Assembly (NCBI GenBank): GCA_002842035.1
Contig: PHBP01000002.1
Coordinates: forward strand, 1-64,000
Reading direction: 5' to 3'
From: Candidatus Cloacimonetes bacterium HGW-Cloacimonetes-2
GTDB lineage: Bacteria > Cloacimonadota > Cloacimonadia > Cloacimonadales > Cloacimonadaceae
DNA: 64,000 nt
The translations under genes were made by a program, and so were the position numbers. The notes under the pieces were generated by a model that was not told the origin of the DNA, made no database searches, and was given only the letters and a program-made list of their open reading frames with translations. Shown piece after piece: positions 6,259 to 58,117 of this stretch; within the stretch, counting starts at the first letter, position 1; each line of letters starts with the position of its first letter.

Positions 6259-6340
6259 AAAGCATTGCAATACAGCCAGATCATTCTTGTTCATCCAGGA
6301 TAGAAGCAGGATAGAAGCAGGATAGAAGCATCCTATCAAT
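6259..6340 (+). repeat. Dispersed 11-bp-unit intergenic element, copy 1
   Basis: A 29-nt head (6271-6299, TACAGCC...CATCCAGG) leads into three perfect units AGGATAGAAGC (6297-6307, 6308-6318, 6319-6329) and a closing ATCCTATC. The last unit and the closing bases form AGGAT/ATCCT (6319-6323 with 6330-6334) around a 6-nt loop. Bases 6296-6339 are identical over 44 nt to copy 3 at 25545-25588 in inverted orientation. The 11-bp period excludes coding. It lies in the 749-bp gap between the DUF2723 gene and the promoter of the giant gene. The rest of that gap (about 5946-6258) shows no gene that I can support. Confidence 0.85.
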
Positions 6341-6402
6341 AGGGGCGCTTGCTATATCTCACCTTAGACTTGACTGCGCAATTCTATCAGTTTACTGGCA
6401 CG

Positions 6403-6436
6403 TATCTCCCACTTTGTGGGAGAATCGTGGGAGATA
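6403..6436 (+). repeat. GTGGGAGA inverted-repeat module, copy 1
   Basis: TATCTCCCAC (6403-6412) is perfectly complementary to GTGGGAGATA (6427-6436). An additional GTGGGAGA sits between them at 6416-6423, so two alternative hairpins share the left arm. The 32 bases 6405-6436 recur with one mismatch, inverted, at 43457-43488. Both copies lie on the same side of a dispersed 11-bp-unit element. The bases beyond are also similar (GAxCGAGCCTA), so the repeated unit is larger than the hairpin. Confidence 0.8.
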
Positions 6437-6486
6437 CATGGGAGAAACGTGCGACCGAGCCTAAGCAGAGGCTGGAGACAGGCAAA

Positions 6487-6512
6487 GAAAAAGCGGGATA
6501 TCAAATCCCGCT
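6487..6512 (-). terminator. Rho-independent terminator after the DUF2723 gene
   Basis: Read on the minus strand, AGCGGGAT, a 5-nt loop and ATCCCGCT (6512-6492) are followed by a run of T (6491-6487). It lies about 22 bases after the stop of the gene ending at 6534 and closes the operon that begins at 14421. Confidence 0.8.
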
Positions 6513-6533
6513 ATTATAGGCTATCTTTAGTTC

Positions 6534-9257
6534 TTACAGGCTATCTGCCGGGGGAGGTGCATCCAGAGCCTGGATGTATGGATTAATATCGTATTGCACT
6601 CGTCCTCTGGTTCTCTCCAGGACAGCTCTGGCCTCTGCCTTGCGATTGTACTGGTGCGCAACGCTGACCACCATCTGGGCATAGGAATTATCCAGCGGGA
6701 AGAATTGCATCCCTCGCTCTATGTAATACATTAGCTTCTCGGGATGGTTTTCCAGCATAAATCCTACTATGTAACCCGGATAGATCTGATCCGCCATAGG
6801 GTGGGTCATAATAGTCGAATCAATAAAGGCATCAAGCTGAGGCCAACGCCCAGCCTCACTGTAGTATGTTACGTAAAACTCAGTGAGTTTGATTTCGCTA
6901 TCGATGTACTTGCGGGCGCGCTCAATATACCTTTCGGCAGTAGCAAAGTCCTTGGTTTTGGTGAAGTGGATAGCTGCTTTCACAAATCCTGATCCATAGT
7001 TCATCACCAGACGGCGCATATTCTCATCTTTGTAAACATCGTCGTCTTCGATAGAGCGGTACTGATAGACCTTCTCGATATTATGAAGCAGGCGCGGGAT
7101 ATTGACCTGATCGACTCCTTCCGTGCTCACGACGCGAGCCACCATACCTTCATTTCGGGTAAAGTCTTCAAATCCGATATAGCTTTCGCAGGTGACCGCG
7201 AAGTAGATGGGGCGTTTACCAAAATTATCCTTGATGATCTGCATAACTGCCAGGTCAGAGATGCGGTAACCACGTTCGTTAGGACGCCACTTGGCTGTTT
7301 CGCCGTACTTGACGGTAAATTCCATCGGAGGGTTTGCACCCTCAGCGCTAATTCTTAGCTCCTGACTGATCTGCATTCTGTACATTTCGTCCAGAAGGGA
7401 ATCATCTATATTAAAGAGAATTCCTTCTTTATCTCTTATCTGTCTGATATACCAGGAGGTATTGAGCAGAGATAGATTGGCAATGGAGACGTCCTTTCGG
7501 ATGCCCTTGAGATACTGATTTTTGTAGTCCATTGCCTTTTGGATGGCCTGGGTACTGGCAGGAGTGGGGAAGATATCCGTTCCCTTGAGCACGGGAGTCT
7601 GATCAGCGTGTGGATCGGCAACCGCCTGTGCGTACCAAAGCGGGAAGGTGTCGTTGTCTCCATTGGTAAAGATGATAGCGTTTTCTTCCAGGGAATTGAG
7701 GAAGTTTACGCCATAATCCAATGCGATGTATTCTTTGGAACGATCGTGTACCTTGTATTGGCTTGCCATATTGCCCAATGCTAGAGCAATCATTACAGCC
7801 GCGATGACTATCCTGGCGGGCTTAGCTTTGGCAAGGCGCACCAGAGCAAGGGAACCGATACCCATCCAGATAGCCCACATATTGTAAGCGACCACAAAGA
7901 AATAATCACGATCGCGGACTTCGGCATTGGACATATTCATTACAAAGACCATAATGATGGTCGTAAGGATGATCACAGAGAAGAAGTAGCGGAAACTGTG
8001 GCGATTATTGATCTTTTGGAACCAAGCGCCGACAATGCCCAAGCCGGCTGTAAAGACTGCCGAAAGCCCGGCTATCAGCCAGATGGGGATCTTGAGAGCT
8101 TGATTGATGGTTTCCTGATGAAACCACTGAATCCCAAAATACCTCAGGAAGTGATATCCAATCTGATCTGTGAAGAAATTGCCCCGGCGTACCATAAATG
8201 AAGTCTCGCCATATTGCTTGCGCAAAACGTAGTCGCTGAACATAGTCAGGGTGCTGGGGTGACCTTCATTGATGAAAGGTCGATCAGCAGCTCTTACCAT
8301 CAGGAAGAGATGCGATGAAAGACCTGCCAGTACGAGCAGGATCGCCATCCCCCAGATACGTTTGTCAAAGATATCATTTAGCTCGATATATAGCAGGATG
8401 ATAGCGATGGTGGCAAAGCCCCATTTATCGAAATCATCGATCCGGACACCTTTGCCGATAGCTCCAAAGATCAGATAGCCAGCAAACATTGCCAGGGAGT
8501 AACCAAATACTTTGAGCCAGAAGTTTTCTGATGCTCTGCCCTTGAGAAAGAGGGGGTATGCTACAATAAAGAGCACTGCAGGAGCGATCTGCAGGGCTGT
8601 CTGGTGTACGCAAAAGCCCAGGAAAAAGAGATAGACGATCAAGAGAAGTATGTTTTGGCGGTCGTAATCTTCAGATTTTTCCACCCAGACCAATGTAAGC
8701 CAGAGGATAAGATTGACGAAAAAGACCAGTCCTGCATATACTTCTGCCTCGATTGCATTCATCCAGAAGGTGAATGAGAAAGCAGTAAGCAAGGCGGACA
8801 TCACACCGGCAAAGATCTTCTGCTTGTCGCCTACTTTGAACATAGAAGTAAGCTTTACAGTGATCAGATAGGTAAACATCACCGCAAAAGCCGAGGTGAG
8901 TCCGGAGAGGAAGGCGGCAATCACGGCATGCGAGAAGATACCTCCAAAGAGGGCGACAACCGCTCTGCCAAAGAGAATGTAAAAGGGATTTCCGGGAGGA
9001 TGTGGCACTCCCAAAATACTGATACAGGTGGCATATTCACCGCTATCCCAAAAGCTCATTGTGCGGGCTTGGGTAAGCATATAGATTAGGAGACTAAAGG
9101 CAAAGAGAGACCATGCTACGATGCGATTGAGCTTGTTGTTTGCCAGGGCTTGGGGTTTGATCACCTGGTCGTCTGCTACCTGCTGTGGTATTGGTTTCTC
9201 ATAGACTTTTGGCTTTTTACCTCTGGTATTGCTTGCAATAGAATTGGCTTTACTCAT
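6534..9257 (-). CDS. DUF2723 family multi-membrane protein, GT-C-like
   Basis: 907 residues. A basic N-terminal tail is followed by many hydrophobic segments up to about residue 490 and a soluble C-terminal part with helical, TPR-like character. The first extracytoplasmic loop has the DUF2723 signature WDSGEY (D71, E74) followed by PHPPGNP near residue 85. Around residue 540 is FTNGDNDTFPLWYAQ, also typical of the family. These proteins resemble GT-C glycosyltransferases of the protein O-mannosyltransferase type, and the early acidic pair sits where such enzymes carry catalytic acids. The donor and acceptor cannot be read from the sequence. The start follows GGAG by five bases, 12 bp after the permease gene, so it is last in the operon. 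Confidence 0.85.
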   Translation of the reverse strand: MSKANSIASNTRGKKPKVYEKPIPQQVADDQVIKPQALANNKLNRIVAWSLFAFSLLIYMLTQARTMSFWDSGEYATCISILGVPHPPGNPFYILFGRAVVALFGGIFSHAVIAAFLSGLTSAFAVMFTYLITVKLTSMFKVGDKQKIFAGVMSALLTAFSFTFWMNAIEAEVYAGLVFFVNLILWLTLVWVEKSEDYDRQNILLLIVYLFFLGFCVHQTALQIAPAVLFIVAYPLFLKGRASENFWLKVFGYSLAMFAGYLIFGAIGKGVRIDDFDKWGFATIAIILLYIELNDIFDKRIWGMAILLVLAGLSSHLFLMVRAADRPFINEGHPSTLTMFSDYVLRKQYGETSFMVRRGNFFTDQIGYHFLRYFGIQWFHQETINQALKIPIWLIAGLSAVFTAGLGIVGAWFQKINNRHSFRYFFSVIILTTIIMVFVMNMSNAEVRDRDYFFVVAYNMWAIWMGIGSLALVRLAKAKPARIVIAAVMIALALGNMASQYKVHDRSKEYIALDYGVNFLNSLEENAIIFTNGDNDTFPLWYAQAVADPHADQTPVLKGTDIFPTPASTQAIQKAMDYKNQYLKGIRKDVSIANLSLLNTSWYIRQIRDKEGILFNIDDSLLDEMYRMQISQELRISAEGANPPMEFTVKYGETAKWRPNERGYRISDLAVMQIIKDNFGKRPIYFAVTCESYIGFEDFTRNEGMVARVVSTEGVDQVNIPRLLHNIEKVYQYRSIEDDDVYKDENMRRLVMNYGSGFVKAAIHFTKTKDFATAERYIERARKYIDSEIKLTEFYVTYYSEAGRWPQLDAFIDSTIMTHPMADQIYPGYIVGFMLENHPEKLMYYIERGMQFFPLDNSYAQMVVSVAHQYNRKAEARAVLERTRGRVQYDINPYIQALDAPPPADSL

Positions 9258-9269
9258 CTATACTCCATA

Positions 9270-10256
9270 TTAATCTTTGAGGCCTGCTTTGGCGTAGCTG
9301 GCAATAATCTGTTTTTGGGCAAAGAAGAAGATAATCAGAATCGGCAATATACTGAATGCCGAAGCTGCCATCAAGAGAGTGGTCTGGGTGGAGGCTTCCT
9401 GATTGAAGTAACTCAAACCCACTTGTAATACGCGTAGTTCCGGACGGTTTGTCATCACCAATGGCCACATAAAGCTATTCCACGATCCGATCAGGGAAAA
9501 GACCGATGCAGTGGCAATGACTGATTTGGACAAGGGGATAATCAAACGCCAGAGCATTCCAAAGGTACTGCAACCATCGAGGGAGGCAGACTCGAAAAGC
9601 TCCTTTGGCAAGCTACGGAAGTGCTGCCTAAAGAGGAAGATAGTGAAAATGTTTACACACCAGGGGATGATCAGTGCCTGATATGTATCCAGCCAACTGA
9701 TCTTGTCCAATAGAATGTAGGAAGAGATCAGATAGATTGGTTCGGGAACCATCATCATACTAAGGAAGAGATAAAACAAGGCATCTTTGCCTTTGAATTC
9801 CATCCTGCCAAAGGCAAAAGCTGCGAGCATTGAGGTAATCAGCACACCGATCAGTGAAATAAAGGAAACTAATAGTGTGTTTGCAAAGTATGTGGCAAAA
9901 GGCACTTTCTTGAAAGCGCGGGTGAAATTGTCCCAATGAAGGGAGGGAACTTTCTTTACCTTGCGAACCTCGGAAGCAGGCACTCGCTTGTACTCGTCAA
10001 CTATGCGGTTATCTTTGTCCAGTGTGTGGATCACTGCTTCCTTGTTTTCTACCTGCACCAGAAGGATCTTATGATCTCCCGCAGGAGACTTCCATACGTG
10101 GTATTCCTCTTTGGGGACGAAGACAGAATCGTGCTTGTTAAACTCTGCTTGATTCATTAGCGAAGTCGAGATCATCCATACAAAAGGGACAACCATAAAG
10201 AGACCAAAGATGATCAGGAAGGTGTAGATAATCGTCATACGTATTGATTCGTTCAT
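9270..10256 (-). CDS. Carbohydrate ABC transporter permease, MalG type, with a loop insertion
   Basis: 328 residues of an inner-membrane subunit that would import a sugar with its partner encoded upstream. The EAA loop that contacts the ATPase is visible as ESASLDGCSTFGMLWRLIIP. The MalG-type C-terminus and SWNSFMWPLVM segment are also present. The odd part is residues about 51-104: an extra charged stretch of about 50 residues in the first periplasmic loop, between TSLMNQAEF and PSLHWDNFTRAF, where family members usually have about 20 residues. It may contact a binding protein or a sugar polymer. No substrate-binding protein or ATPase gene is in the window. The gap to the upstream permease is 12 bp. 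Confidence 0.9.
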   Translation of the reverse strand: MNESIRMTIIYTFLIIFGLFMVVPFVWMISTSLMNQAEFNKHDSVFVPKEEYHVWKSPAGDHKILLVQVENKEAVIHTLDKDNRIVDEYKRVPASEVRKVKKVPSLHWDNFTRAFKKVPFATYFANTLLVSFISLIGVLITSMLAAFAFGRMEFKGKDALFYLFLSMMMVPEPIYLISSYILLDKISWLDTYQALIIPWCVNIFTIFLFRQHFRSLPKELFESASLDGCSTFGMLWRLIIPLSKSVIATASVFSLIGSWNSFMWPLVMTNRPELRVLQVGLSYFNQEASTQTTLLMAASAFSILPILIIFFFAQKQIIASYAKAGLKD

Positions 10257-10268
10257 CTTTCTGCTCCT

Positions 10269-20077: not shown

Positions 20078-20125
20078 TGTTACCTCTTTCTGTGCTAAAT
20101 GGCTATTTGTTTCACTTAGCGAAAA

Positions 20126-20151
20126 ATGGGCAGACACTAAGGTCTGCCCAT
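20126..20151 (-). terminator. Hairpin between the cDPG synthetase homologue and arcC
   Basis: On the minus strand ATGGGCAGAC and GTCTGCCCAT form a perfect 10-bp stem with a 6-nt loop, followed by ATTTTTCGC. It lies 20 bases after the upstream stop and about 50 bases before the arcC start. It can serve as a terminator or as partial attenuation that lowers arcC relative to its neighbour. Confidence 0.75.
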
Positions 20152-20171
20152 GGCATAAGTGATTGTATTTA

Positions 20172-25544: not shown

Positions 25545-25626
25545 TTGATAGGATGCTTCTATCCTGCTTCTATCCTGCTTCTATCCTGCTTGGACAGGCA
25601 TTATTGAGCTGTCCAGCAATGCTTTA
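25545..25626 (-). repeat. Dispersed 11-bp-unit intergenic element, copy 3
   Basis: Read on the minus strand: head GACAGCTCAATAATGCCTG..., then three perfect AGGATAGAAGC units (25587-25577, 25576-25566, 25565-25555) and ATCCTATC. The 44 bases 25588-25545 are identical to 6296-6339. The head is preceded by AAAGCATTGC, as in copy 1. It fills much of the gap between the barrel-protein gene and the cyclase gene. Confidence 0.85.
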
Positions 25627-34319: not shown

Positions 34320-34489
34320 TGTATCCTCCATTTCTTTTCATCTGTAGCGATACTCATCCGAGGGCTGATTTTGTCAATCTAAAAAAGTATTTTACAGTTT
34401 TTTAGAAGATTTTTTCACTTTCTTCCACGTAGCTATGCAGCGCTGTAACTAATTGCTAATTATATCGATAACGGCATCACTATAAGAGC

Positions 34490-34544
34490 TTGATATAGCT
34501 AAAGTGCTGTTATATCAACAGAAAAGTGATTTTTTTTGTTGACA
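34490..34544 (+). promoter_or_regulatory. Inverted-repeat operator candidate and -35 element upstream of the HU gene
   Basis: TTGATATA (34490-34497) and TATATCAA (34511-34518) are perfectly complementary across 13 bases. TTGACA at 34539-34544 follows and could be a -35 hexamer. No good TATAAT-like -10 follows at normal spacing. Site and promoter lie 70-125 bases before the HU start, in the divergent gap shared with the lipoprotein gene. Confidence 0.4.
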
Positions 34545-34615
34545 GAATTTCCAGATGCGCATTTCTTCATAACATACTATCTCTAACTCTTTTATAAGAA
34601 CGAAAAGGAGGTAAA

Positions 34616-34903
34616 ATGAGCAGAGATGAATTGATTAAAAAGATCGCTGGAGCAGCCGGTGTATCCCAGAAAGTAGCTGGTATTGCACTCGGTGCCGTCC
34701 TCGAAGGCATCACTGAAGCCCTCAAAAAGGGTGACAAAGTCACATTGGTTGGTTTTGGTTCCTTTGGCGTTGCAGCCCGCAAAGCCCGTAAAGGTATTAA
34801 TCCCAAGACCAAAGAGCCCTTGAAGATTCCAGCCCGCAAAGTTCCTGTCTTCAAAGCTGGCAAGAAACTCAAAGACGCAGTCAAGGGCGGAAAGAAAAAA
34901 TAA
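34616..34903 (+). CDS. HU-family nucleoid DNA-binding protein
   Basis: 95 residues. The N-terminal helices read MSRDELIKKIAGAAGVSQKVAG, slightly unusual but in family form. The core GDKVTLVGFGSFGV and the DNA-binding arm with NPKTKEPLKIPARKVPVFKAG are textbook HU/IHF. The C-terminus is a short basic tail (KGGKKK). It bends and compacts DNA as a dimer. A strong GGAGG lies four bases before the ATG, which suggests high expression, and a terminator follows directly, so the gene is monocistronic. Confidence 0.97.
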   Translation: MSRDELIKKIAGAAGVSQKVAGIALGAVLEGITEALKKGDKVTLVGFGSFGVAARKARKGINPKTKEPLKIPARKVPVFKAGKKLKDAVKGGKKK

Positions 34904-34920
34904 CCCCTTAATTAATAGAG

Positions 34921-34957
34921 AAGCAGGCGTCCATTTGGGCTCCTGCTTTTCTTTTTC
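34921..34957 (+). terminator. Rho-independent terminator of the HU gene
   Basis: AAGCAGG (34921-34927) pairs with CCTGCTT (34942-34948) around a 14-nt loop and is followed by a T-rich run up to 34957. It starts 18 bases after the HU stop. Confidence 0.8.
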
Positions 34958-34991
34958 CCCAATAAACCTCCTATTGGGTGATACAATCATA

Positions 34992-35080
34992 AAACCTTGC
35001 AGGGCAGTCCTATGATGCCTTTTCATGCAGGATTCAAGCAGGATAGAAGCAGGATTGATGCATCCTGCAAGCATCTATCC
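34992..35080 (+). repeat. Dispersed 11-bp-unit intergenic element, copy 4
   Basis: Head GGCAGTCCTATGATGCC... ends in TTCATGCAGG. Five WGCA-N7 units follow in exact 11-bp phase: TGCAGGATTCA (35026), AGCAGGATAGA (35037), AGCAGGATTGA (35048), TGCATCCTGCA (35059) and AGCATCTATCC (35070). It sits between the HU terminator and the dnaN promoter region. The remainder of the 308-bp gap has only TTGACG (35146-35151) as a possible -35 for dnaN. Confidence 0.8.
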
Positions 35081-35211
35081 AAAGGGAAGCGAATGAGGCG
35101 GGTCACAGAATAGACAGTGGATAGGTGACAGCCAAGCAAAAATCATTGACGAAATTGAGGGATGGATTTTTTCTGCTACGAGAAAGAAAATAAACATCCA
35201 AGGGGTGAATA

Positions 35212-36378
35212 ATGAGATTATCCATTGAAAAGAAGGACTTGATCCAGCACATACAGCATCTGGCTGCTATCGTGCCCACAAAGATCACAACCCCGATTTT
35301 GACCAATTACCTGATCGAGGTTAGCGCAGAGACAAATTCGATTCAAATTACCGCATCGGATCTGGATATTACTGCAATCGTAAAATTCCCGGCGGCTGTA
35401 ATCGAAGGCGGCACAATAGCTGTATCTGCCAGGCATCTGAACGAAATTATCTCCAGTATGCCGGACGACGTGATCAATCTTTGGAAAAATGAAGACCTCT
35501 TGGTGATCCAATGCGGCAAGATCGACTTTAAGCTGCTTTGTGCGGATCATACTCTCTATCCGATCATCCCCGTCACCAATCTAAAAGGTGCGATCAAAAT
35601 GGATGCAGAGTTATTCCAGCGAATGGTAAACAAGACCAGCTTTGCAGTTTCATCCGATACAAACAGAGCCGTGCTTACCGGAGTATGCTGGAAGATCTTT
35701 GAAAATGAACATCTGATGGCAGCCACTGACGGACGGAAGGTCGCAGAGATCAAGGTTCGAGACAACTTTATGCAAAACCAGGAAATGGCAAAAGACTCAG
35801 AGGACAATATCTTTGGCGACGGCAAAGAGTCTTATGTAGAAAAGATCATCCCGGTAAAGACCTTGAGCTTCATTCAAAAGATATATAATGCGCAGATCAA
35901 AGAGCTCAATCTGGTGATGGAACACAATAAGATGATGTTTGCCTATGGCGAATACACCGTCTTCACCAATATCCTGGAGCATAAGTATCCGGAGTATCAA
36001 AAGGCATTTGTACACGACCTACCCAATTGTCTGATCATAGATCGTGAAAAGCTCAAGACAGCCATTCGCCGTGTGGCTTTGGTGGCTCCTGATGACAATC
36101 TCCGCACACGCTTTGAAATTGACAGCGACAGATTTGAGATAAATACCAGCAATAGAGAAACCGGTGACGCCAAGCAGTTTATGGAAGATTATTCCTATCA
36201 GGGCAAACCCACCAACGTTTCCTTTAATTACAAGTTTATGCTCTCAATCCTGGAAGCTGTTGACACTGACAAGGTGAAGATACTACTGGGTTCTCCCAAA
36301 GATCCTTTGATGATCTATAATGAGATGAATCCGGAGAATCAGGAACTCACCTTCCTGCTGATGCCGCTACGGTCTTAG
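35212..36378 (+). CDS. dnaN: DNA polymerase III beta subunit (sliding clamp)
   Basis: 388 residues. The sequence follows the three-domain clamp: MRLSIEKKDLIQHIQHLAAIVP at the start, ISARHLNEI-type strands in the middle, and a C-terminus ending LTFLLMPLRS, the typical LxMPMR-like tail that lines the binding pocket. The ring-shaped dimer tethers polymerase III and repair proteins to DNA. It heads a long plus-strand operon: recF begins three bases after its stop. dnaA is not in the window, so this need not mark the origin. Confidence 0.97.
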   Translation: MRLSIEKKDLIQHIQHLAAIVPTKITTPILTNYLIEVSAETNSIQITASDLDITAIVKFPAAVIEGGTIAVSARHLNEIISSMPDDVINLWKNEDLLVIQCGKIDFKLLCADHTLYPIIPVTNLKGAIKMDAELFQRMVNKTSFAVSSDTNRAVLTGVCWKIFENEHLMAATDGRKVAEIKVRDNFMQNQEMAKDSEDNIFGDGKESYVEKIIPVKTLSFIQKIYNAQIKELNLVMEHNKMMFAYGEYTVFTNILEHKYPEYQKAFVHDLPNCLIIDREKLKTAIRRVALVAPDDNLRTRFEIDSDRFEINTSNRETGDAKQFMEDYSYQGKPTNVSFNYKFMLSILEAVDTDKVKILLGSPKDPLMIYNEMNPENQELTFLLMPLRS

Positions 36379-43409: not shown

Positions 43410-43456
43410 GCCTTTTCCTCTTTCTTTCCTAGGCTCGATCGTTCACTGCAAGCAGC

Positions 43457-43488
43457 TATCTCCCACGATTCTCCCACAAAGAGGGAGA
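43457..43488 (-). repeat. GTGGGAGA inverted-repeat module, copy 2
   Basis: The reverse complement differs from 6405-6436 at one base in 32. The mismatch (A to T) shortens the left arm of the outer hairpin. Beyond it, GATCGAGCCTAGG matches GACCGAGCCTAAG after copy 1. It lies in the 366-bp gap between the convergent mtaB and the gene ending at 43776. Confidence 0.8.
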
Positions 43489-43560
43489 AAAGTGGCTGTA
43501 AGGAGGGAGAGATGTATGAGCGAGTTTTAGTAGAGGCTGTGTGAACTGCGCTCCCATTGA

Positions 43561-43633
43561 TAAGATGTATGAATCCTGCTTCTACCCTGCTTGAATCCTG
43601 CATGAGCAAGCATGATAAAGCTGTCCTGCAATG
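43561..43633 (-). repeat. Dispersed 11-bp-unit intergenic element, copy 2
   Basis: Read on the minus strand: CATTGCAG, head GACAGCTTTATCATGC..., then TGCAGGATTCA, AGCAGGGTAGA and AGCAGGATTCA, closing with TACATCTTATC. It is the most diverged of the copies with three units. With the GTGGGAGA module about 70 bp further on, it repeats the composite layout of copy 1 in inverted orientation. No gene is seen in the gap 43410-43775. Confidence 0.8.
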
Positions 43634-43732
43634 AATTACGAGATATCAATTGAAAAGGGGCTCAAGGAAGATCGTTGAGTAGCAGATAGTTATGGCAGGA
43701 AAGAAACACCCACAGATATCAGGCAATAAGAA

Positions 43733-43755
43733 AAGCGGATCAAATTGACCCGCTT
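43733..43755 (-). terminator. Terminator for the minus-strand gene ending at 43776
   Basis: AAGCGG (43733-43738) and CCGCTT (43750-43755) pair, with an inner TCAA/TTGA extension after one mismatch. On the minus strand the stem is followed by TTCTTATTG, a modest T-rich tail. It lies 20 bases after the stop. Confidence 0.65.
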
Positions 43756-43775
43756 CTTTATGATAAGGGATTTAC

Positions 43776-44153: not shown

Positions 44154-44173
44154 TGTCTTTACCTCTTTATGTG

Positions 44174-44887: not shown

Positions 44888-45131
44888 ATGAAACCTCATA
44901 AACGCATTACTAATTATATCACTATATTGTGTCAAGCAAAATCGAGCCCTTTTTTCAAAAAACTGTCCACGATAATGACCAGTCTGTGGCAGTGAAAGCA
45001 GAGCTACTTGTATAATCTACTCCATTTCAGTGGAATAACTGCATATTTATTAAGTTGGTATGCTATTATCAGCGAAAGGATTTGACAAGATCATAGTATG
45101 AGAAAAATGACATCACGATCAGGAGAGAAAA

Positions 45132-49856: not shown

Positions 49857-49963
49857 ACAGACTTTCCCTTCATTGATTCCAAAAATCAGCAGGTTAATCC
49901 TAAGCCACTAAAGATCAGCCATCTATCAGCCCCTTTTGGATTGTATCTCCATAAATACTTATA

Positions 49964-50020
49964 GAACAGCTGCTTGATGGATGTTCATGCAGGATACAAG
50001 CAGGATACAAGCAGGAATCG
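49964..50020 (+). repeat. Dispersed 11-bp-unit intergenic element, copy 5
   Basis: Head AACAGCTGCTTGATGGATG... ends in TTCATGCAGG. Then TGCAGGATACA and AGCAGGATACA in 11-bp phase, followed by a broken AGCAGGAATCG. It lacks the closing ATCCTATC. The head is nearly identical to copy 6 over GCTGCTTGATGGATGTTCAT. It lies between the glycosidase gene and coaBC. Confidence 0.75.
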
Positions 50021-50081
50021 AAAGAGAAGGAATTAAGTTGACGTAATTTATGAATTGTGAGAATTGTACTTTTCGTATAGA

Positions 50082-50111
50082 TACGGCTATTTTTCGAATG
50101 GGTTAGCCGTA
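50082..50111 (+). promoter_or_regulatory. Leader hairpin before coaBC
   Basis: TACGGCTA (50082-50089) and TAGCCGTA (50104-50111) form a perfect 8-bp stem with a 14-nt loop. It ends 20 bases before the coaBC ATG and just before AAGGA. It may be an operator or an RNA hairpin. TATAGA (50076-50081) abuts its left edge and could be a -10. Confidence 0.4.
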
Positions 50112-50131
50112 AACAGCTAAGGAATGAGAAT

Positions 50132-51301: not shown

Positions 51302-52041
51302 AAGATAGGACCATTCTGATCTCCGGCGCCAATGGGCAGACAGGTGCATATCTCGCAAAGCACTACTTGGATAGAGGTGCGCGCTTGATCCTGCTTTACC
51401 ATAAGCGAAAAGATAGAATCAAAACACTTGTTGATAATCCCTATGTCAAGGCTATAGCTGCTGATCTTTGCGATGCGGAGGTATTAGCACAATTACTGAT
51501 ACCGGTTATCAAAGATATGGTGCCTGATACACTGATCCATACTGCTTCTGTCCGTAGCTCGGATGCAAAGGCACTCCCGGATACTGATATGCTGATTTGG
51601 GAAGATGTGTTTAGAACTAACGTTATGGGATTCTATAATATATGCAAGCTCGTTCTGCCCCTGATGCAGGAAAGCGGCTTTGGAAGGGTAGTAGTAATGG
51701 GCAGCAATGTTACGCAGAGCGGACTGGCCAAAGGAAGCGCTTATGCAGCGGCCAAAGCTGCCATGGTAAATATGATTAAGTCTCTGGCATTGGAGAATGC
51801 AAACAAAGATATCAAGCTGAATGCTATCTCTCCGGGGCCTCTACAGACAGTTTTGGAAGAAGATTACCAGGGTGAGTATCTGGAGTTTCGCAAAAGTTAC
51901 TTTAAGAACTACCTTGAGAATAGTAAAACAGGTAAGTTAACACCTCTAAGCGAGATTGCTCAAATCTGCGATATGCTGGTATCGCCGAACTTACAAAATC
52001 TCAGCGGGGAAGAGATATTAGTGGAAGGAATGATAAGATGA
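51298..52041 (+). CDS. Short-chain dehydrogenase/reductase
   Basis: 247 residues. The cofactor loop is SGANGQTGAYLAKH, a variant of TGxxxGxG. The catalytic YAAAK motif has its Ser upstream in VMGSNVTQ, and LNAISPGPLQT follows, as in classical SDRs. Substrate and cofactor cannot be decided; the basic RARLILLYHKRKDR stretch after strand two hints at NADPH. It overlaps coaBC and the DUF3108 gene by 4 bp each. The context (CoA synthesis, queuosine, biotin ligase) does not reveal its pathway. Confidence 0.85.
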   Translation: MKDRTILISGANGQTGAYLAKHYLDRGARLILLYHKRKDRIKTLVDNPYVKAIAADLCDAEVLAQLLIPVIKDMVPDTLIHTASVRSSDAKALPDTDMLIWEDVFRTNVMGFYNICKLVLPLMQESGFGRVVVMGSNVTQSGLAKGSAYAAAKAAMVNMIKSLALENANKDIKLNAISPGPLQTVLEEDYQGEYLEFRKSYFKNYLENSKTGKLTPLSEIAQICDMLVSPNLQNLSGEEILVEGMIR

Positions 52042-52796
52042 CTAATAAAATGATCTTAGTAATGATCTTGCTGCTTATTGGAATCGGGCTGACAGCTACG
52101 CCATTTAGAGATGGGGAAAAGCTGGTTTTTACAGTTCGCTATGGTGTGGTTAATGCCGCAGAAGCTACGATCGAAACCAATGGAACAAGTTTTCAGGGAG
52201 TGCCGGTCTGGCACCTGAAGATCAGCGCCAGGACTCAGCCTTTCTTCGATCCTTTTTTCAAGATCAGAGATAGAGTCGAATCATGGTGGAGAAAGGACAA
52301 CCTCTTGCCTTTGAAGTTCTCAAAGAACTTACAGGAAGGGAATTATCGTCAGTACCGCATTCATACTTATAATCACAGAGCAAATACAACGACATATCAG
52401 AAGTATGCCTTTAGGCAAGAGACCTTTATCACAGAGGAAATGCCTCTGGTAGCAGGTTCTCAGGATATCCTGAGTGCTTTCTTTTGGGTAAGGCATCAGA
52501 GCTTGACGCCCGGAAGAAGCGTCTTTGTCCATATTACTGCAGATGGCAGATCGATGAGGACAGAAGTCAAGGTTCATAGAAGAGAAACAATCGATACCAT
52601 CTTTGGCAGGAAACAGTGCCTGGTTATCGAGCCGAAGCTGGCTGGTGAAGCCGTGTTTAAGCAAAGCGGCAGGATATTGATTTGGCTTACTGATGATGAA
52701 TACAAGATTCCGGTCAAACTGGATAGCGCTGTGTCCTTTGGATCGTTTGTGGCAACTCTGAGTTCTGCACAGAATGTTGGACTTAGGATACCTTGA
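52038..52796 (+). CDS. DUF3108 family periplasmic protein
   Basis: 252 residues with a hydrophobic signal (MTNKMILVMILLLIGIGLTATP). The family hallmarks are a start like FRDGEKLVFTVRYGVVNAAEATIE, then DRVESWWRKDNLLPLKFSKNLQEGNYR, and a C-terminal strand region ending in a ligand-like beta sheet. The DUF3108 function is not established; members are exported beta-rich proteins. It overlaps queA by 4 bp and the SDR gene by 4 bp, so it is translated in the coaBC operon. Confidence 0.8.
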   Translation: MTNKMILVMILLLIGIGLTATPFRDGEKLVFTVRYGVVNAAEATIETNGTSFQGVPVWHLKISARTQPFFDPFFKIRDRVESWWRKDNLLPLKFSKNLQEGNYRQYRIHTYNHRANTTTYQKYAFRQETFITEEMPLVAGSQDILSAFFWVRHQSLTPGRSVFVHITADGRSMRTEVKVHRRETIDTIFGRKQCLVIEPKLAGEAVFKQSGRILIWLTDDEYKIPVKLDSAVSFGSFVATLSSAQNVGLRIP

Positions 52797-53833
52797 TGTG
52801 CCCGGACTTATTTGATATAAACGCTTACGATTACGATTTACCAAAAGAGCTGATAGCTCAGTATCCTCTTGAGGAAAGAACTGAATCACGGCTGATGGTT
52901 TTGAATAGAGCTGCGAGATCAATAGTAGATCGCAAATTCAAGGATATCAGGGACTACCTGATGCCCGGGGATTTGCTGGTTTTGAACAGCAGTAAAGTAT
53001 TTCCAGCCAGGTTGTTTGGAACCAAACATAATGGGACCAGGATAGAAGTCCTTTTGATGAACGAGATTGAGCCGGGTATCTGGAAAGCTATGGTGCATCC
53101 CGGCAAGAGGCTCAAAGAAAAGCAGATTCTGGTCTTTTCGCCCAGACTAAGTGGAGAGATCGGACTTCCCGATGAGGATGGATTTAGAGAAATTGCCTTT
53201 AGTGTTGATGGAGACTTTTGGGAAGAGCTGAACCAAGTGGGTCACATTCCCTTGCCTCCCTATATTGAACGGCTAGATGTTACAGAAGACAAGGGCAGAT
53301 ATCAGACAGTCTATGCCAAGCATACCGGTTCTATAGCTGCTCCCACGGCAGGTTTTCATTTCTCTGAAGACCTGATAGATGATCTTAAACGTGATGGTAT
53401 CAAGATAGCGGAGCTGGTCTTGCATGTCGGGATTGGTACTTTCAGGCCGGTTAAGACGGAGCGGATCGATCAGCACAAAATGCACTCTGAGTATTGTGTA
53501 ATCGATCAGGATCTGGCTGATCTCTATAGAGAAACCAGAGCTACGGGCGGAAGAGTTATAGCAGTAGGCACGACCAGTCTGAGAACAATGGAATCTTTCT
53601 ACAAAGACGGAGAAATCATAGCCGGCTCAGCTTGGACTGATATCTTCCTGCATCCAGGGAAGAAAGTGCAAAGTATAGATGCTTTGATTACTAACTTCCA
53701 TCTTCCAAAGTCAACTCTATTGATGCTAGTATCGGCTTTTGCCGGATATGAGATGACCCGGGAAGCCTATCACAGAGCTGTTACAGAAGCTTATAGGTTC
53801 TTTAGCTATGGTGATGCCATGTTTATCTATTAG
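52793..53833 (+). CDS. queA: S-adenosylmethionine:tRNA ribosyltransferase-isomerase
   Basis: 346 residues, the normal QueA length. Diagnostic stretches are YDLPKELIAQYPLEERTESRLMVL near the start, LPPYIERLDVTEDKGRYQTVYAK, and GSIAAPTAGFHFSEDL followed by LHVGIGTFRPVK. It transfers the ribosyl part of SAM to preQ1 in tRNA and so makes epoxyqueuosine. No other queuosine gene is in the window. The stop is followed at once by GGAGG for the biotin ligase gene. Confidence 0.97.
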   Translation: MMCPDLFDINAYDYDLPKELIAQYPLEERTESRLMVLNRAARSIVDRKFKDIRDYLMPGDLLVLNSSKVFPARLFGTKHNGTRIEVLLMNEIEPGIWKAMVHPGKRLKEKQILVFSPRLSGEIGLPDEDGFREIAFSVDGDFWEELNQVGHIPLPPYIERLDVTEDKGRYQTVYAKHTGSIAAPTAGFHFSEDLIDDLKRDGIKIAELVLHVGIGTFRPVKTERIDQHKMHSEYCVIDQDLADLYRETRATGGRVIAVGTTSLRTMESFYKDGEIIAGSAWTDIFLHPGKKVQSIDALITNFHLPKSTLLMLVSAFAGYEMTREAYHRAVTEAYRFFSYGDAMFIY

Positions 53834-53841
53834 GAGGACGT

Positions 53842-54561
53842 ATCAAACGCAATATAGTTCATTACGACGTCATAGACAGCACAATGAAGGAATATGAGAG
53901 ATTACATCAGGCAAATCCTGAAGCTCTTTGGACAATACGTGCAGACAGACAAAGCCAGGGTTTTGGACGAGGCTTGAATCAATGGCATTCTTCACTGGGT
54001 GGTCTGTGGTTCAGCTTTGACATGGTGGAGACAAGGATGTTGGAATCGTTTGCATTGTATGTAGGTGCTTGCGTCCACAAAGTGCTTCTGAAGCACTTTC
54101 CCGTACTCGAAGACAAGCTGCTGATCAAGTGGCCCAATGATATCTATTATGGAGACAGAAAGCTCGCCGGAATCCTCACCCGATACAGCACCAGTGAATC
54201 AAGATACATAATCGGTATTGGCATCAATACCAATAACCGCTTGGAAGAACAAAGCCTGGAACAAACTGCAGCTATCTTGGGTGATATCTTGGAGGATTCA
54301 GTTTCAAACAGCTTCCTGATGGCTTTTATAATAGATCAGATACAGGCAGATTCGGTTGTATTGGATAATCCCTGTTCTTACCTTGATTATTGTGATAACA
54401 ACCTCTATGGAAAGGGTAGGCAGGCAGCCGTTACAGGAGAAACCAACACGCATCAGGGCAAGATCGTTGGTCTTGATCCCTTTGGTGCGATAATACTGGA
54501 GGATGAAGCAGGTAAACAGACAGTCCACAGATTTGGTTCATTGCTGGTGGAGAAATCCTGA
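53842..54561 (+). CDS. birA: Biotin--[acetyl-CoA-carboxylase] ligase, probable non-AUG start
   Basis: The first ATG (53884) gives 225 residues, but the conserved HYDVIDST motif that holds the biotin-binding Ser-Thr is encoded just upstream in the same frame (53860-53883). Between the preceding in-frame stop (53812-53814) and that ATG there is no ATG, GTG or TTG. GGAGG at 53833-53837 sits four bases before an ATC at 53842, the same spacing as in the HU gene. Starting there gives 239 residues (M/I-KRNIVHYDVIDSTMK). The rest shows the biotin loop GRGLNQWHS, KWPNDIYYGDRKLAGIL and GIGINTN. There is no N-terminal DNA-binding domain, so it is a ligase and not a repressor. Confidence 0.88.
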   Translation: MKRNIVHYDVIDSTMKEYERLHQANPEALWTIRADRQSQGFGRGLNQWHSSLGGLWFSFDMVETRMLESFALYVGACVHKVLLKHFPVLEDKLLIKWPNDIYYGDRKLAGILTRYSTSESRYIIGIGINTNNRLEEQSLEQTAAILGDILEDSVSNSFLMAFIIDQIQADSVVLDNPCSYLDYCDNNLYGKGRQAAVTGETNTHQGKIVGLDPFGAIILEDEAGKQTVHRFGSLLVEKS

Positions 54562-56186
54562 TGGTTTTTAAGAATCTAATCCTTAGTATTATGGTTTGTT
54601 TCGTTCCTGTTCTCCTGTGTGCACAATGGGCTTGGGCAAGTAGCTTTGGATCACTGGGTATGGAGAGAGTTTGGGATCTCTCAGTGGATTCAGCTGATAA
54701 CATTATCGTAGGTGGTGAATTCGCCGACAGCCTGCTGATCAATGGCCAGAATCTGGCTGGTTTCGGGCTCTCAGATAGCTTTGTTGTAAAATACAACTCT
54801 GCGGGGGAACTGCAATGGGTTAAGGTCTTTGGTTCTACACAAGAAGATGTAATCCTGGAAGTCGATACCGATGGATTAGGTAATGTCTATGCATCAGGTT
54901 TCTTCATAGGCAGTCTGTCTTGTGAGGATCAGACCGTCAATTCTATGGGACTCTGGGATGCCTTTATCATAAAACTTAATCCCCAGGGAGAGCTGATCTG
55001 GCTGAAATCCTTTGGTGGTCCTTTGAACGACATTGCCTATGGTATTGCTGTTAATGACTGTGGCTTCATCAACGTAACCGGTTGGTTTGCCGATACCATC
55101 ATTTTCCCTGGAGGAACCAGCCTTGTGAGCTATGGTGGTAGCGATATCTTCAACATAGCGTATAATACAGATGGGGAGCTACTCTGGGCGCGCAGTGCCG
55201 GATCTCCGGGTGTCGAATATGGCTATAAGATTGCCAACGACGAAGCCGGTAACTCCTATGTAACAGGCTCTGCCGGACAAGGCGTAGTCTTTGATAGTGA
55301 AACCCTTCAGGGCAACGGGATGTATGTAGCAAAGTACAATTCTCAAGGAGTAATCCAGTGGCTTAGCGGCTCGAACGGTGCTTTCGTGATCAGCATAGCG
55401 GTTCAATATGACGTATCTTCTGCTCAAAAAGGTATGGTAGCAGGGAGACTGCAGGGCACAGGAAGCATCGGCTCGTTTCCATTCAGTACTTATTCTGGCA
55501 CTGATGACGTATACTGGGCGGAATATGATGCTACTACCGGCGAGTGGGTAAATCTGGATTACTTTGGTGGCGAAGGCTCTGATAAAGCCAGAGATTGCGA
55601 TTACAAGGACTTTCCCGTAATGACAGGTTCATTTGAACAAGCTGTCAATATCAACTCCATAGACTACAACAGCAGTGGCGAAGCTGATGCTTTTATTGCT
55701 CTGAGGCCGGGCTCTGTGATAGATTTTGCTCCTGCCGGTGGAACTTATAGCGAAGCTCCATCCGCGGTCGGACTCTTATCTGATGGACGTGTGGCAATAG
55801 CTGGCTGGCATTTTGGACAGGCAAGATTTGGTAATCATCTGATCGATAGTCTGTCTCCATCCAACCAGAATGGCTTTGTCGCTCTCTACTCGCCAATTCC
55901 CAGCAGTTCCTCAGACAACTTCCTTCCGGCTGTCTCGCAAATCAAATCATACCCCAATCCCTTTGTAAACAGCATCACTATCGAGCTACCTGAAAAGACC
56001 CATGCTCATCACACAATGCATATCTACAATATCAAAGGACAATTGGTTCGCAGCATATCCACGCTTGATCAACGCGTCCTCAATTGGGATGGTCGGGATG
56101 ATGGTGGTTTTGATCTGCCAACAGGGCTTTATCTCGTTGGTAGCGATCCTCTTGTTCCAGCTACACGTATCCTAAAGATCAGATAG
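54561..56186 (+). CDS. Secreted SBBP-type beta-propeller protein with FlgD-like sorting domain
   Basis: 541 residues. A signal peptide (MVFKNLILSIMVCFVPVLLC) is followed by at least five repeats of about 45-60 residues with cores like DGLGNVYASGFFIGSL, DAFIIKLNPQGELIWLKSFGG and AGNSYVTGSAG, matching the SBBP (beta-propeller) family. The last 80 residues, SYPNPFVNSITIEL through IYNIKGQLVRSI to RILKIR, form a FlgD-like C-terminal sorting domain like that of the C25 peptidase. It is probably surface-attached or secreted. The ATG overlaps the birA stop (TGATG), so it belongs to the same operon. Confidence 0.85.
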   Translation: MVFKNLILSIMVCFVPVLLCAQWAWASSFGSLGMERVWDLSVDSADNIIVGGEFADSLLINGQNLAGFGLSDSFVVKYNSAGELQWVKVFGSTQEDVILEVDTDGLGNVYASGFFIGSLSCEDQTVNSMGLWDAFIIKLNPQGELIWLKSFGGPLNDIAYGIAVNDCGFINVTGWFADTIIFPGGTSLVSYGGSDIFNIAYNTDGELLWARSAGSPGVEYGYKIANDEAGNSYVTGSAGQGVVFDSETLQGNGMYVAKYNSQGVIQWLSGSNGAFVISIAVQYDVSSAQKGMVAGRLQGTGSIGSFPFSTYSGTDDVYWAEYDATTGEWVNLDYFGGEGSDKARDCDYKDFPVMTGSFEQAVNINSIDYNSSGEADAFIALRPGSVIDFAPAGGTYSEAPSAVGLLSDGRVAIAGWHFGQARFGNHLIDSLSPSNQNGFVALYSPIPSSSSDNFLPAVSQIKSYPNPFVNSITIELPEKTHAHHTMHIYNIKGQLVRSISTLDQRVLNWDGRDDGGFDLPTGLYLVGSDPLVPATRILKIR

Positions 56187-56340
56187 AACAAAGGGATTAC
56201 CAAGTTCTTAAGTAATAAAATATAGAAACATAAGATCAGTGTTGAATATTCACAGCTAATCTGACAGCCCTTTTTGCTTGACAGATTAGTATCTTGAAAA
56301 AGCAATGAAAAAAAACTAAGTTTAAACTGGTGGAGGAATA

Positions 56341-57957
56341 ATGAAGAAGCTAGTCCTGATGACCATAGTGATGATGATGGCGGTTACCGGCGCTCTATTT
56401 GCCCAGACCGTTACCAAAGTCGCTATCCTGCCTGTGAAAGCTGTAGACAGCAATAGCAGATACATAAAGAACATTCTAACCAAAAGAGATTTCCGCATTA
56501 CTTTCGAACAGCATGAGCAGTATCAACTGCTCGATATGAAGGCTGTCGAAAGAGGCTTCAAGCAGACCGGTTACCGCGACGTTGAAGGTCTTGAGCCCGA
56601 AGAAATGGACGAAGTTGCAGTAGCACTCGGTGCTGATCTATTGATCCTTGGTAACGTTAGCACTGTCAACAGCAGTACTTTCCGCGTTTCCCTTCGCCTC
56701 TACAGCCCCAAGAGTAAAGAGCTGCGTCAAATGAACTTTGCCGTAGTGAAAGACCGTCGGACCCGCTGGGCTACTCTGAATACAGATTTTATGAGCCAGA
56801 TCGACCAGTTCATCACCAATGAAGTTCAGAAGATGTACGACATCGCTCTCAACCTCTATGTTCAAGAGAATTACACAGAAGCAGAGAGAACTCTTACCAA
56901 TGTCCTTTCTCTTGATGCTGACAAGAAAGAAGCCCACTATACCCTGGGTAGCGTCTATTTCAAGACCAATCGCTATCCCCAGGCCGTCACTTCACTCAAT
57001 AGAGCTGCTGAACTCGATACTGCTTATATCCAACCTTTGTACACCTTGATCGAGGTTTATGAAGCCAGCAATCAGCCCATCGAAAGAATCGGTGTTATGT
57101 CCCGTATTGCTGAGAAGAACCAGGATGAAGAGCTGTGGTTCAATATTGGTAACCTCTGGGCAGAGAATGGCAACGTACCCAAAGCAGTTGAATCCTTCCG
57201 CAAAGCGATTGCCATCAATCCGGAATACGCTGTCGCACAATATCGATTGGCATTCATACTTTATGATCAGGGCAATTTCTCTGAAGCTATCGAACACCTC
57301 GAATTCGCTTATAATCAGTACCCCGATAACGACCTGATTGCCCGCCGTCTGGCTATGGCATACCAGAGAAGCGGTCGCATCGACGATGCTATTGCCCGCT
57401 ACGAGCAAGCTATCGCTGCCAATCCCACCAGTACACAGGCATACCTGAATGTGGTAAGTCTCTATCGTATCAAGGCCAGCGAAGCCGGATCGGCTGCCGT
57501 GACTGCTGAGATGAATCAGAAAGCCATAGACCTGATGAACAGGCTGAAAAATGCCGATCCTAACAACGCTCTGGCTTATCTCAATCTTGCCAGCATTTAC
57601 CTAGGTTCAAACCGCAACAACGAAGCTGAAACCAATGCTAATCTTGCCATCAGTAAAGATCCCAGCCTCTACCTTTCTTATGTGATACTTGCCACTATTG
57701 CCCAGACTCGTGGTACTGAAAGCTACAATAGATTCGTAGATCTGGAACAGCGTGCTTCACAGGCTGTTGGAAGACAAGCAACCAATCTCCGCAGAGACAG
57801 AGATGCTGCCAAGACTCAGGCAAATACTCAGTTCCGCAGAGCATTGGATCAGCTCCAGGCTGCTCGCAGCCGCACAACCGATGCTGAAGTGATCAATGAC
57901 ATCAACGGTCGCATTACACGCGTCCAAGCTCTCATCAATTCAACATCCGGCTATTAA
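56341..57957 (+). CDS. Exported FlgO/CsgG-like and TPR protein
   Basis: 538 residues with signal peptide MKKLVLMTIVMMMAVTGALFAQ. Residues about 23-150 resemble the CsgG/FlgO-type fold: KVAILPVKAVDSNSRY, then VAVALGADLLILGNVSTVNSS. From about 165 a run of at least seven TPRs follows (ENYTEAERTLTNVLSLDADKKE, GNFSEAIEHLEFAYNQYPDN). A coiled, Ala/Arg-rich tail of 60 residues closes the protein. It is probably periplasmic and binds partners through its TPRs. GGAGG lies four bases before the ATG, and TTGACA (56278-56283) may be the -35 of its own promoter. Confidence 0.8.
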   Translation: MKKLVLMTIVMMMAVTGALFAQTVTKVAILPVKAVDSNSRYIKNILTKRDFRITFEQHEQYQLLDMKAVERGFKQTGYRDVEGLEPEEMDEVAVALGADLLILGNVSTVNSSTFRVSLRLYSPKSKELRQMNFAVVKDRRTRWATLNTDFMSQIDQFITNEVQKMYDIALNLYVQENYTEAERTLTNVLSLDADKKEAHYTLGSVYFKTNRYPQAVTSLNRAAELDTAYIQPLYTLIEVYEASNQPIERIGVMSRIAEKNQDEELWFNIGNLWAENGNVPKAVESFRKAIAINPEYAVAQYRLAFILYDQGNFSEAIEHLEFAYNQYPDNDLIARRLAMAYQRSGRIDDAIARYEQAIAANPTSTQAYLNVVSLYRIKASEAGSAAVTAEMNQKAIDLMNRLKNADPNNALAYLNLASIYLGSNRNNEAETNANLAISKDPSLYLSYVILATIAQTRGTESYNRFVDLEQRASQAVGRQATNLRRDRDAAKTQANTQFRRALDQLQAARSRTTDAEVINDINGRITRVQALINSTSGY

Positions 57958-57982
57958 TCGCTACTAGATAACAAGATAGATT

Positions 57983-58014
57983 AAGGCGTCTCGTATGAGG
58001 CGCCTTCCTTTTTG
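57983..58014 (+). terminator. Rho-independent terminator after the TPR gene
   Basis: AAGGCGTCTC (57983-57992) pairs with GAGGCGCCTT (57997-58006), including one G-T pair, around GTAT. CCTTTTTG follows. It ends the coaBC-to-TPR region. Confidence 0.9.
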
Positions 58015-58044
58015 CCTGCTAATTCAATGAAAGCACGTAAACAC

Positions 58045-58117
58045 TTCATAAATACGCTGCTTGATGGATGTTCATCCAGGATTCAAGCAGGATAGAAGCA
58101 GGATACAAGCATCCTAT
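58045..58117 (+). repeat. Dispersed 11-bp-unit intergenic element, copy 6
   Basis: Head ATACGCTGCTTGATGG... ends in TTCATCCAGG. Then TCCAGGATTCA, AGCAGGATAGA, AGCAGGATACA and AGCATCCTATG in 11-bp phase. The head can also fold: TGGATG pairs with CATCCA across two bases, and GCTTGA with TCAAGC outside it. It lies between the TPR gene terminator and the pirin promoter. Confidence 0.8.

What the first reader, a model, noticed from the sequence alone, without database searches (positions are those of the whole stretch)
6259..58117. A dispersed intergenic element with a 29-nt head and phased 11-bp WGCA-N7 units, six copies
Copies at 6259-6340(+), 25545-25626(-), 34992-35080(+), 43561-43633(-), 49964-50020(+) and 58045-58117(+) align without gaps over a 29-nt head (consensus near RACAGCT....ATGC.TGTTCATGCAGG). 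Two to four units of about AGCAGGATAGA follow, with variable heptamers. The period is close to one helical turn, so each WGCA faces the same side of the DNA. They occur only between genes, in both orientations, about one per 10 kb. I know of no named family with this layout. It may be a REP-like mobile element, a nucleoid-protein site or an RNA hairpin.
Basis: seen in the sequence. Interest (0 to 1): 0.8.

Follow-up and report, generated by a model that had tools for sequence, protein, structure and literature searches.

The report
Regularly spaced 11-bp-phased intergenic arrays
This bacterium's chromosome carries many copies of intergenic DNA elements built from 11-base units, kept about five kilobases or more apart, and related species carry elements of the same design with different letters, which suggests sites that help organise the chromosome.

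Summary
The six window copies belong to a family ("R1") of 86 intergenic copies in the 2.5-Mb genome: about 126 bp, an imperfect palindrome, three or four 11-bp units in 79 of 86.

R1 is one of several sequence-unrelated families of one design: 11-bp units, usually with an inverted arm. A second large family, "B", has about 56 copies, one in the window at 18942-19020. Several relatives carry other units.

Copies keep apart: R1 has 0 of 73 gaps under 5 kb (null means 12.5-16.2), B 0 of 45 (null 9.6); R1 and B occupy different territories.

In two sister species sharing one unit, 11 of 18 array loci are orthologous, with the same array orientation. In a same-genus species with another unit, arrays often sit beside orthologous genes; in a second one this was not significant.

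A REP/RAYT origin is weakly supported. Best explanation: cooperative protein-binding sites, dispersed by past copying and kept at spaced positions for chromosome organisation. The function is inferred; no binding protein was found.

The parts
6226..6349 (+).
   Evidence: 91.9-92 bits
25534..25658 (-). R1 copy 2
   Evidence: 92.3-92.4 bits
34960..35072 (+). R1 copy 3, in the gap upstream of dnaN (35212-36378)
   Evidence: 88.2-88.3 bits
43547..43668 (-). R1 copy 4; the gap between the same two genes in G002 holds an array of a different unit
49922..50021 (+). R1 copy 5 (shorter match, model positions 5-104)
   Evidence: 75.8-75.9 bits
58007..58131 (+). R1 copy 6
   Evidence: 84.7 bits
18942..19020 (.).
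   Evidence: fold z -10.5
6394..6445 (+). Family E array (GTGGGAGANNC units), starting 45 bp beyond R1 copy 1
   Evidence: fold z -4.5
43459..43477 (-). Family E fragment beside R1 copy 4

Best explanation
R1 is one member of a class of chromosomal DNA sites built as phased arrays: 11-bp units, in the cases read mostly 2 to 9 in a row, meeting a short centre and a shorter or equal inverted arm. SHOWN: several sequence-unrelated families share this design in one genome. The two large families there each keep at least 5 kb between the copies found. They occupy different territories. In two sister species that share one unit, 11 of 18 array loci are orthologous and the arrays have the same orientation, although the adjoining intergenic DNA has mostly diverged (read by eye). 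INFERRED: each array is a cooperative platform for a small DNA-binding protein, one protomer per helical turn, as CarH-type (MerR winged helix) and ParR-type (ribbon-helix-helix) proteins bind 11-bp direct repeats. The sites act at a distance by dividing the chromosome into roughly 10-kb stretches. Families spread by copying in the past, and copies too close to an existing site are lost or never fixed. Unit sequence turns over between species because array and binding protein change together.
For: R1: 86 copies at 40-103 bits; the other 9 matches at E<=1 (25 bits and below) are 8 antisense hits on known copies and one of 10.9 bits. 0 of 86 inside a called gene; coding fraction 0.85. Spacing: 0 of 73 gaps <5 kb against means of 12.5-16.2 under five nulls, none of 5000 runs each as low, and 14.0 when limited to intergenic gaps modelled on the window, never below 5 in 3000 runs. 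No extra R1 copy at E<=0.05 in the +-3 kb held around each copy. Family B: 0 of 45 gaps <5 kb, null 9.6. Between families, 3 pairs have centres 90-119 bp apart and the next is 3.6 kb; B elements with R1 within 3.5 kb: 3, null 9.0, P 0.005. Same-family neighbours 85 of 128, null 66.4 +/- 5.4, P 0.0004. Period: lag 11 gives 11 hits in 505 kb of R1-masked flanks, all 11 with an inverted arm; the other lags from 7 to 23 give 0-2; E. coli 100 kb gives 0 at lag 11. G007 against G054: 11 of 18 loci orthologous (12 pairs), same orientation in 12 of 12 pairs. G002 against G000, different units: of 13 array-adjacent genes with a match among genes of the R1 loci, 12 match an R1-adjacent gene (null 0.41, P 1.7e-4; by length 0.51, P 0.002); two gaps match on both sides. 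CarH binds tandem 11-bp direct repeats (PMC9304148, passages); ParR of plasmid R1 needs two 11-bp repeats (PMC9426499, passages).
Against: No binding protein was found or looked for by experiment. R1 copies are diverged (mean pairwise identity 0.63; units 0.87, 5' part 0.55) and family C and D composites recur at fixed offsets, so copying has occurred and a mobile origin is not excluded. G001 shows no significant sharing of positions with R1 (3 of 5 matched adjacent genes, P 0.33; non-adjacent genes 3 of 6). Wide gaps are few (11 of at least 60 bp in about 58 kb of the window), so some coincidence of positions between species is expected. Gene context differs between families (tandem/convergent/divergent): R1 47/25/11, G007 7/1/7, G054 7/2/10. 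In G011, 9-bp arrays outnumber 11-bp arrays (61 against 9 lag hits in 400 kb), so 11 is not the only period in the group. R1 orientation shows no order: 35 same, 38 opposite neighbours. The spacing rule was tested statistically in one genome only; among 56 G001 elements in a truncated list, 15 within-contig gaps have a minimum of 4746 bp.
Confidence: 0.4

Rival explanations
1. Miniature mobile elements (MITE- or REPIN-like), moved by a transposase in trans, with a target-immunity-like rule that keeps insertions apart. Each family is a past burst; territories reflect when and where each burst happened.
For: Family size, intergenic location, imperfect palindromes, and different units in different species. 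Composites copied together: 9 of 9 family C elements lie 26-81 bp from an R1 copy, 3 of 3 family D matches lie 22 bp from one on its 5' side (distances). Y1-transposase genes at 1e-5 in 36 of 49 genomes of the family, one of them in G000. R1 lies mostly in tandem or convergent gaps (72 of 83), as REPs are said to do (PMC3733652, abstract). A rearrangement breakpoint lies inside an array: L234 pairs with L259 on one side and L269 on the other.
Against: 11 of 18 G007 array loci sit at orthologous places in G054, same orientation. Separation also holds between sequence-unrelated families, which sequence-specific immunity would not give. G007 and G054 have no Y1 match at 1e-5, though G046 with the same unit has one. 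Tags of known REPs are rare. No match in viral contigs to three exact patterns. Published REP doublets are described as randomly distributed in extragenic space (PMC3116915, abstract and passages).
Confidence: 0.3
2. Old, now inert MITE families. Only a few wide intergenic gaps tolerate them, and copies near each other have been deleted by recombination. Nothing binds them.
For: Few wide gaps in the window (11 of at least 60 bp in about 58 kb). R1 copies are diverged (mean identity 0.63). An array coincides with a rearrangement breakpoint. End units decay in some orthologous pairs (for example L241/L270).
Against: The units are far better conserved than the rest (0.87 against 0.55 in 56 three-unit copies, which were chosen by their units). 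Arrays persist where the adjoining intergenic DNA has mostly diverged (by eye). The separation exceeds a gap-restricted null and holds between unrelated families, which cannot recombine by homology.
Confidence: 0.18
3. Transcribed RNA hairpins (terminators, 3'-end stabilisers or processing sites); 11 bp equals one turn of A-form RNA (recalled).
For: Families B and E and those of G001, G006 and G019 fold into stems (z -4.5 to -11.1 as DNA). R1 is often in convergent gaps (25 of 83).
Against: R1 does not fold better than shuffles in five of six window copies. No orientation rule relative to genes. 7 of 15 classed G007 and 10 of 19 classed G054 arrays lie in divergent gaps. Terminators would be expected at intervals shorter than 5 kb (inference). 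The G007 arrays read have one inverted unit only, z -1.3 for the one folded.
Confidence: 0.1

Closest known systems
REP / REPIN with RAYT transposase (PMC3116915, abstract and passages; PMC3733652, abstract)
   Same: Intergenic, palindromic, many copies, often species-specific, both orientations, mostly tandem and convergent gaps
   Different: R1 lacks the GTAG/CGTC tag pattern, has an 11-bp phased grammar and long-range separation of copies, and the genome's Y1 gene is below the curated RAYT cut-off
ERIC / MITE-type intergenic repeats (127-bp RU-1; PMC2759123, abstract start in a search listing; that RU-1 is ERIC is recalled)
   Same: About 126 bp, imperfect palindrome, intergenic
   Different: Several unrelated sequences in one genome share an 11-bp register and a spacing rule
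matS/MatP sites of the E. coli Ter macrodomain (search listing only; details recalled)
   Same: Dispersed sites confined largely to one territory of the chromosome
   Different: matS is a single short palindrome (recalled), not a phased array; two families occupy different territories here
parC arrays bound by ParR, plasmid R1 (PMC9426499, passages)
   Same: 11-bp direct repeats, at least two needed for binding
   Different: One plasmid centromere upstream of parM, not dozens of dispersed chromosomal sites
CarH operators (PMC9304148, passages)
   Same: Three or four tandem 11-bp direct repeats bound by an oligomer
   Different: Promoter operators of the form nnnnTnnACAn; the R1 unit does not fit that form

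Membership tests
REP/REPIN | GTAG or CGTC tag at the foot of the palindrome (PMC3733652, abstract) | tested here: not met
   Near the ends of 86 copies: GTAG 4 (3') and 1 (5'), CTAC 2 and 1, CGTC 1 (5'), GACG 1 (5'); no chance level computed
REP/REPIN | A RAYT gene in the genome | tested here: inconclusive
   One 228-aa Y1 protein, NF047646 45.9 bits against a cut-off of 80; no R1 copy flanks it (R1 neighbours on C2 at 425156 and 512451)
REP/REPIN | Random distribution of doublets in extragenic space | tested here: not met
   0 of 73 gaps <5 kb against a mean of 14.0 in gap-restricted simulation
MITE | Terminal inverted repeats | tested here: inconclusive
   The element is an imperfect palindrome; sharp ends not defined
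MITE | Target-site duplication and an autonomous partner | not tested
   No empty-site comparison was made and no transposon with matching ends was sought
ERIC | Sequence homology to ERIC | not tested
   Only length and architecture were compared
Rfam RNA families | Match above gathering score | tested here: not met
   0 matches in the window
matS/MatP | Single short palindromic site bound by MatP (recalled) | tested here: not met
   R1 is a roughly 126-bp phased array; presence of MatP not tested
parC/ParR | Array beside parM/parR genes | not tested
   86 dispersed sites; neighbouring genes were not screened for parM/parR
CarH operator | 11-bp repeats of the form nnnnTnnACAn | tested here: not met
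   R1 unit WGCAGGATWSA has no TnnACA in any rotation (by inspection; form). The G007 unit, rotated to AAGCTGGACAT, does fit; by my rough estimate several per cent of random units would

The most novel reading that the evidence does not exclude
A bacterial lineage carries a chromosome-wide site system with a fixed geometry (11-bp phased, convergent arrays, spaced about 5 kb or more) but a freely changing sequence. Unrelated array families tile different territories of one chromosome, and positions outlast the sequence: arrays with different units stand in the same gaps in sister species, rewritten in concert with a changing binding protein.
Probability: 0.3. Interest if true: 0.92.

Novelty: new variant of a known kind. 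Interest (0 to 1): 0.8.

Why it matters
Dispersed palindromic repeats in bacteria are usually explained as selfish or as RNA signals. Here two families with unrelated sequence obey the same spacing of at least 5 kb and divide the chromosome between them, and two sister species keep arrays at the same places. If a protein binds them, this would be a chromosome-organising system whose recognition sequence changes quickly while geometry and position stay, a natural test of how spacing of sites, rather than their sequence, shapes a nucleoid.

Tried and rejected
Rfam: no match. RNA consensus fold of 25 R1 copies: -20.5 kcal/mol against -6.2 +/- 2.8 for 100 column shuffles, but the stems found lie in the central palindrome and in the third unit, and single copies do not beat dinucleotide shuffles in DNA folding except one, so an RNA reading was not adopted. 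Promoter or leader reading: rejected, no orientation rule. Terminator reading: rejected because G007/G054 arrays are often in divergent gaps. Plasmid search with dnaN-region DNA, for identification: no match. Pattern scan of genome contigs: 13 stretches in scattered taxa, taken as chance, not followed. R1 search of the family: 21 of 48 other genomes have weak matches (best E 1.3e-6, the rest 8.6e-4 or weaker); 13 were fetched and re-scored and only the full-length one (G009) was taken as a relative. Literature: searches showed no description of this layout; the library lacks most subscription journals.
Full report
OBSERVATION. The six copies exist as described, and the repeat pattern is far above chance in the window (10 matches against 0.00 in 100 shuffles). 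An ungapped alignment of 25 copies shows conservation from about -69 to +56 around the first unit. A sequence-only model (R1) built from 27 copies finds 86 copies at 40-103 bits in the 2,507,010-base genome; the other 9 matches at E<=1 are 8 antisense hits on known copies (25 bits and less) and one 10.9-bit match. The search scored 150 of 1241 first-look candidates, so weak copies may be missing. None of the 86 lies in a called gene, with a coding fraction of 0.85 in the sampled loci.

ANATOMY. Fifty-seven of 86 copies have three consecutive units matching at least 8 of 11 consensus positions, 22 have four, 4 have two, 2 have five and 1 has one. In the 56 three-unit copies with enough flank, mean pairwise identity is 0.87 in the units and 0.55 in the 5' part; these copies were chosen by their units, which favours the units. 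The profile matches its own reverse complement best about a centre at -3.5 (score 20.1; all offsets tested 0.9 +/- 4.5), so the 'head' is the degenerate inverted arm. Folded as single-stranded DNA, five of the six window copies do no better than shuffles; 58007-58131 has z -2.43.

SPACING. The 86 copies give 73 within-contig gaps; the smallest is 5036 bp and 36 are between 5 and 12 kb. Five null models (uniform, fixed per contig, three jitters) give means of 12.5-16.2 gaps under 5 kb, and none of 5000 runs each gives zero. A null restricted to intergenic gaps, bootstrapped from only 11 window gaps that I chose by eye from the ORF table, gives a mean of 14.0 and never fewer than 5 in 3000 runs. 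A local search of the +-3 kb held around each copy (less at contig ends) found no other copy at E<=0.05. Neighbouring copies show no orientation rule (35 same, 38 opposite).

OTHER FAMILIES IN THE SAME GENOME. A de novo scan for self-match at lag 11 found, besides R1, arrays of several unrelated units. In 505 kb of flanks with R1 masked, lag 11 gives 11 hits, all with an inverted arm; the other lags from 7 to 23 give 0-2; 100 kb of E. coli K-12 gives 0 at lag 11. By the list these arrays lie 18-81 bp from an R1 copy. Family B is large: 110 pattern windows, of which the 100 listed merge into 56 elements. The window copy folds as a long stem (z -10.5). B also has no gap under 5 kb (0 of 45, smallest 5147; null 9.6). 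B and R1 occupy different territories: same-family neighbours 85 of 128, null 66.4 +/- 5.4, P 0.0004; for example C10 has 16 R1 and 0 B, C6 has 1 R1 and 7 B. Three R1-B pairs have centres 90-119 bp apart; the next is 3.6 kb. B elements with an R1 copy within 3.5 kb number 3 against a null of 9.0 (P 0.005), within 5 kb 7 against 12.2 (P 0.02), within 1 kb 3 against 2.6. The 12 pattern windows of family C make 9 elements, all 26-81 bp from an R1 copy, 8 of them on its 3' side; the 3 family D matches lie 22 bp from one on its 5' side (distances worked out). Fixed offsets mean composites were copied.

RELATIVES. The two-unit R1 pattern is absent from 39 of 39 relatives at up to one mismatch. A generic pattern CAGG-N7-CAGG-N7-CAGG over 106 genomes of the order has a match in 33, many of them single and probably chance, but several genomes hold many copies with their own unit (G002, G006, G013, G019, G065 among those listed; G088 and G090 also have many but were not read). 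The reversed control pattern proved informative: GGAC-N7 arrays abound in G007, G054 and G046 (unit GGACATAAGCT). G001 has a CCGASTCTTCR family with 238 + 238 windows (control 6 + 8). G009 has one full-length relative with ACACAGG units. Direct reading shows units meeting a short centre and an inverted arm in most of the stretches printed. In G011 (400 kb) lag 11 gives 9 hits, 8 with an inverted arm, but lag 9 gives 61 (26 with an inverted arm), from other repeats; so other periods exist in this group.

POSITIONAL CONSERVATION. G007 and G054 share the unit. Of 18 G007 array loci fetched, 11 have an orthologous flank at one of 22 fetched G054 array loci (81-94% protein identity for the best gene; 12 pairs, because L234 matches L259 on the left and L269 on the right, a rearrangement with its breakpoint in the array). 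Not all G054 arrays were fetched, so 11 is a lower bound. In all 12 pairs the array has the same orientation. By eye the nearby intergenic DNA is largely unalignable, though a few pairs keep some homology (for example the right side of L232/L268). The number of intact units differs in 9 of 12 pairs, partly through decay of end units and partly through change in array length. G002 has another unit. I examined 21 of 26 distinct G002 sites in the list. There, 13 array-adjacent genes match a gene of the R1 loci, 12 of them an R1-adjacent gene (expected share 0.41, P 1.7e-4; by length 0.51, P 0.002); non-adjacent genes of the same loci: 0 of 8, not independent. Collapsed by hand per R1 locus this is 10 of 11, from 9 of the 21 G002 loci. 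In two loci both flanks match, so the gap is the same: L284 with window copy 43547-43668, and L288 with C8:228842. G001 (22 loci) shows no significant sharing (3 of 5, P 0.33; non-adjacent 3 of 6). Wide gaps are scarce, so part of the sharing may be forced.

MECHANISM. REP/RAYT: the only Y1 gene at 1e-5 in G000 scores 45.9 bits against the RAYT model's cut-off of 80. G007 and G054 have none at 1e-5, but G046 with the same unit has one, and 36 of 49 genomes of the family have at least one. REPs carry GTAG or CGTC tags (PMC3733652, abstract), rare at R1 ends. Published REP doublets are described as random in extragenic space (PMC3116915; abstract and passages read). Known proteins that read 11-bp direct repeats are CarH (PMC9304148, passages) and ParR of plasmid R1 (PMC9426499, passages). 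I therefore favour phased binding arrays maintained for chromosome organisation, at about 0.4; a mobile origin with a spacing rule stays close (0.3). That the arrays are bound, and by what, is inference.

ORGANISM. No call names it. Window proteins such as peptidase C25, type IX-type sorting domains and a TMEM260-like protein suggest to me the FCB group (inference). From recall only, G011's contig length of 2,246,820 resembles Ca. Cloacimonas acidaminovorans, which would make the family Cloacimonadaceae; this was not tested.

Noticed in passing
L334-L353 (G011:C1:600001-1000000): Many 9-bp tandem arrays (for example AACCTTCTC and ACGCAGATT units), 61 lag-9 hits in 400 kb, and some 7- and 8-bp arrays, apparently intergenic.
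   Followed up: partly
L212:8377-9063(-): A Y1-transposase/RAYT-like protein with an N-terminal TDPQ repeat; by my reading of the translations (no family search) its neighbours look like a methyltransferase and a helicase. A family B element is about 1.8 kb away.
   Followed up: partly
L234 (G007) against L259 and L269 (G054): A chromosomal rearrangement between sister species has its breakpoint inside an array.
   Followed up: partly
G007, G054 and G046 array loci near contig ends (e.g. L243, L246, L249, L254): Several draft assemblies break close to arrays, so copy numbers there may be underestimated.
   Followed up: no
window 34331-35212: An R1 copy lies in the wide gap directly upstream of dnaN; dnaN is often near the origin (recalled), so the R1 territory may include it.
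   Followed up: no
L160:3017-3068 (G000:C14): A further array with GATCCCCTAGT units in a contig poor in both R1 and B; possibly a third territory family.
   Followed up: no
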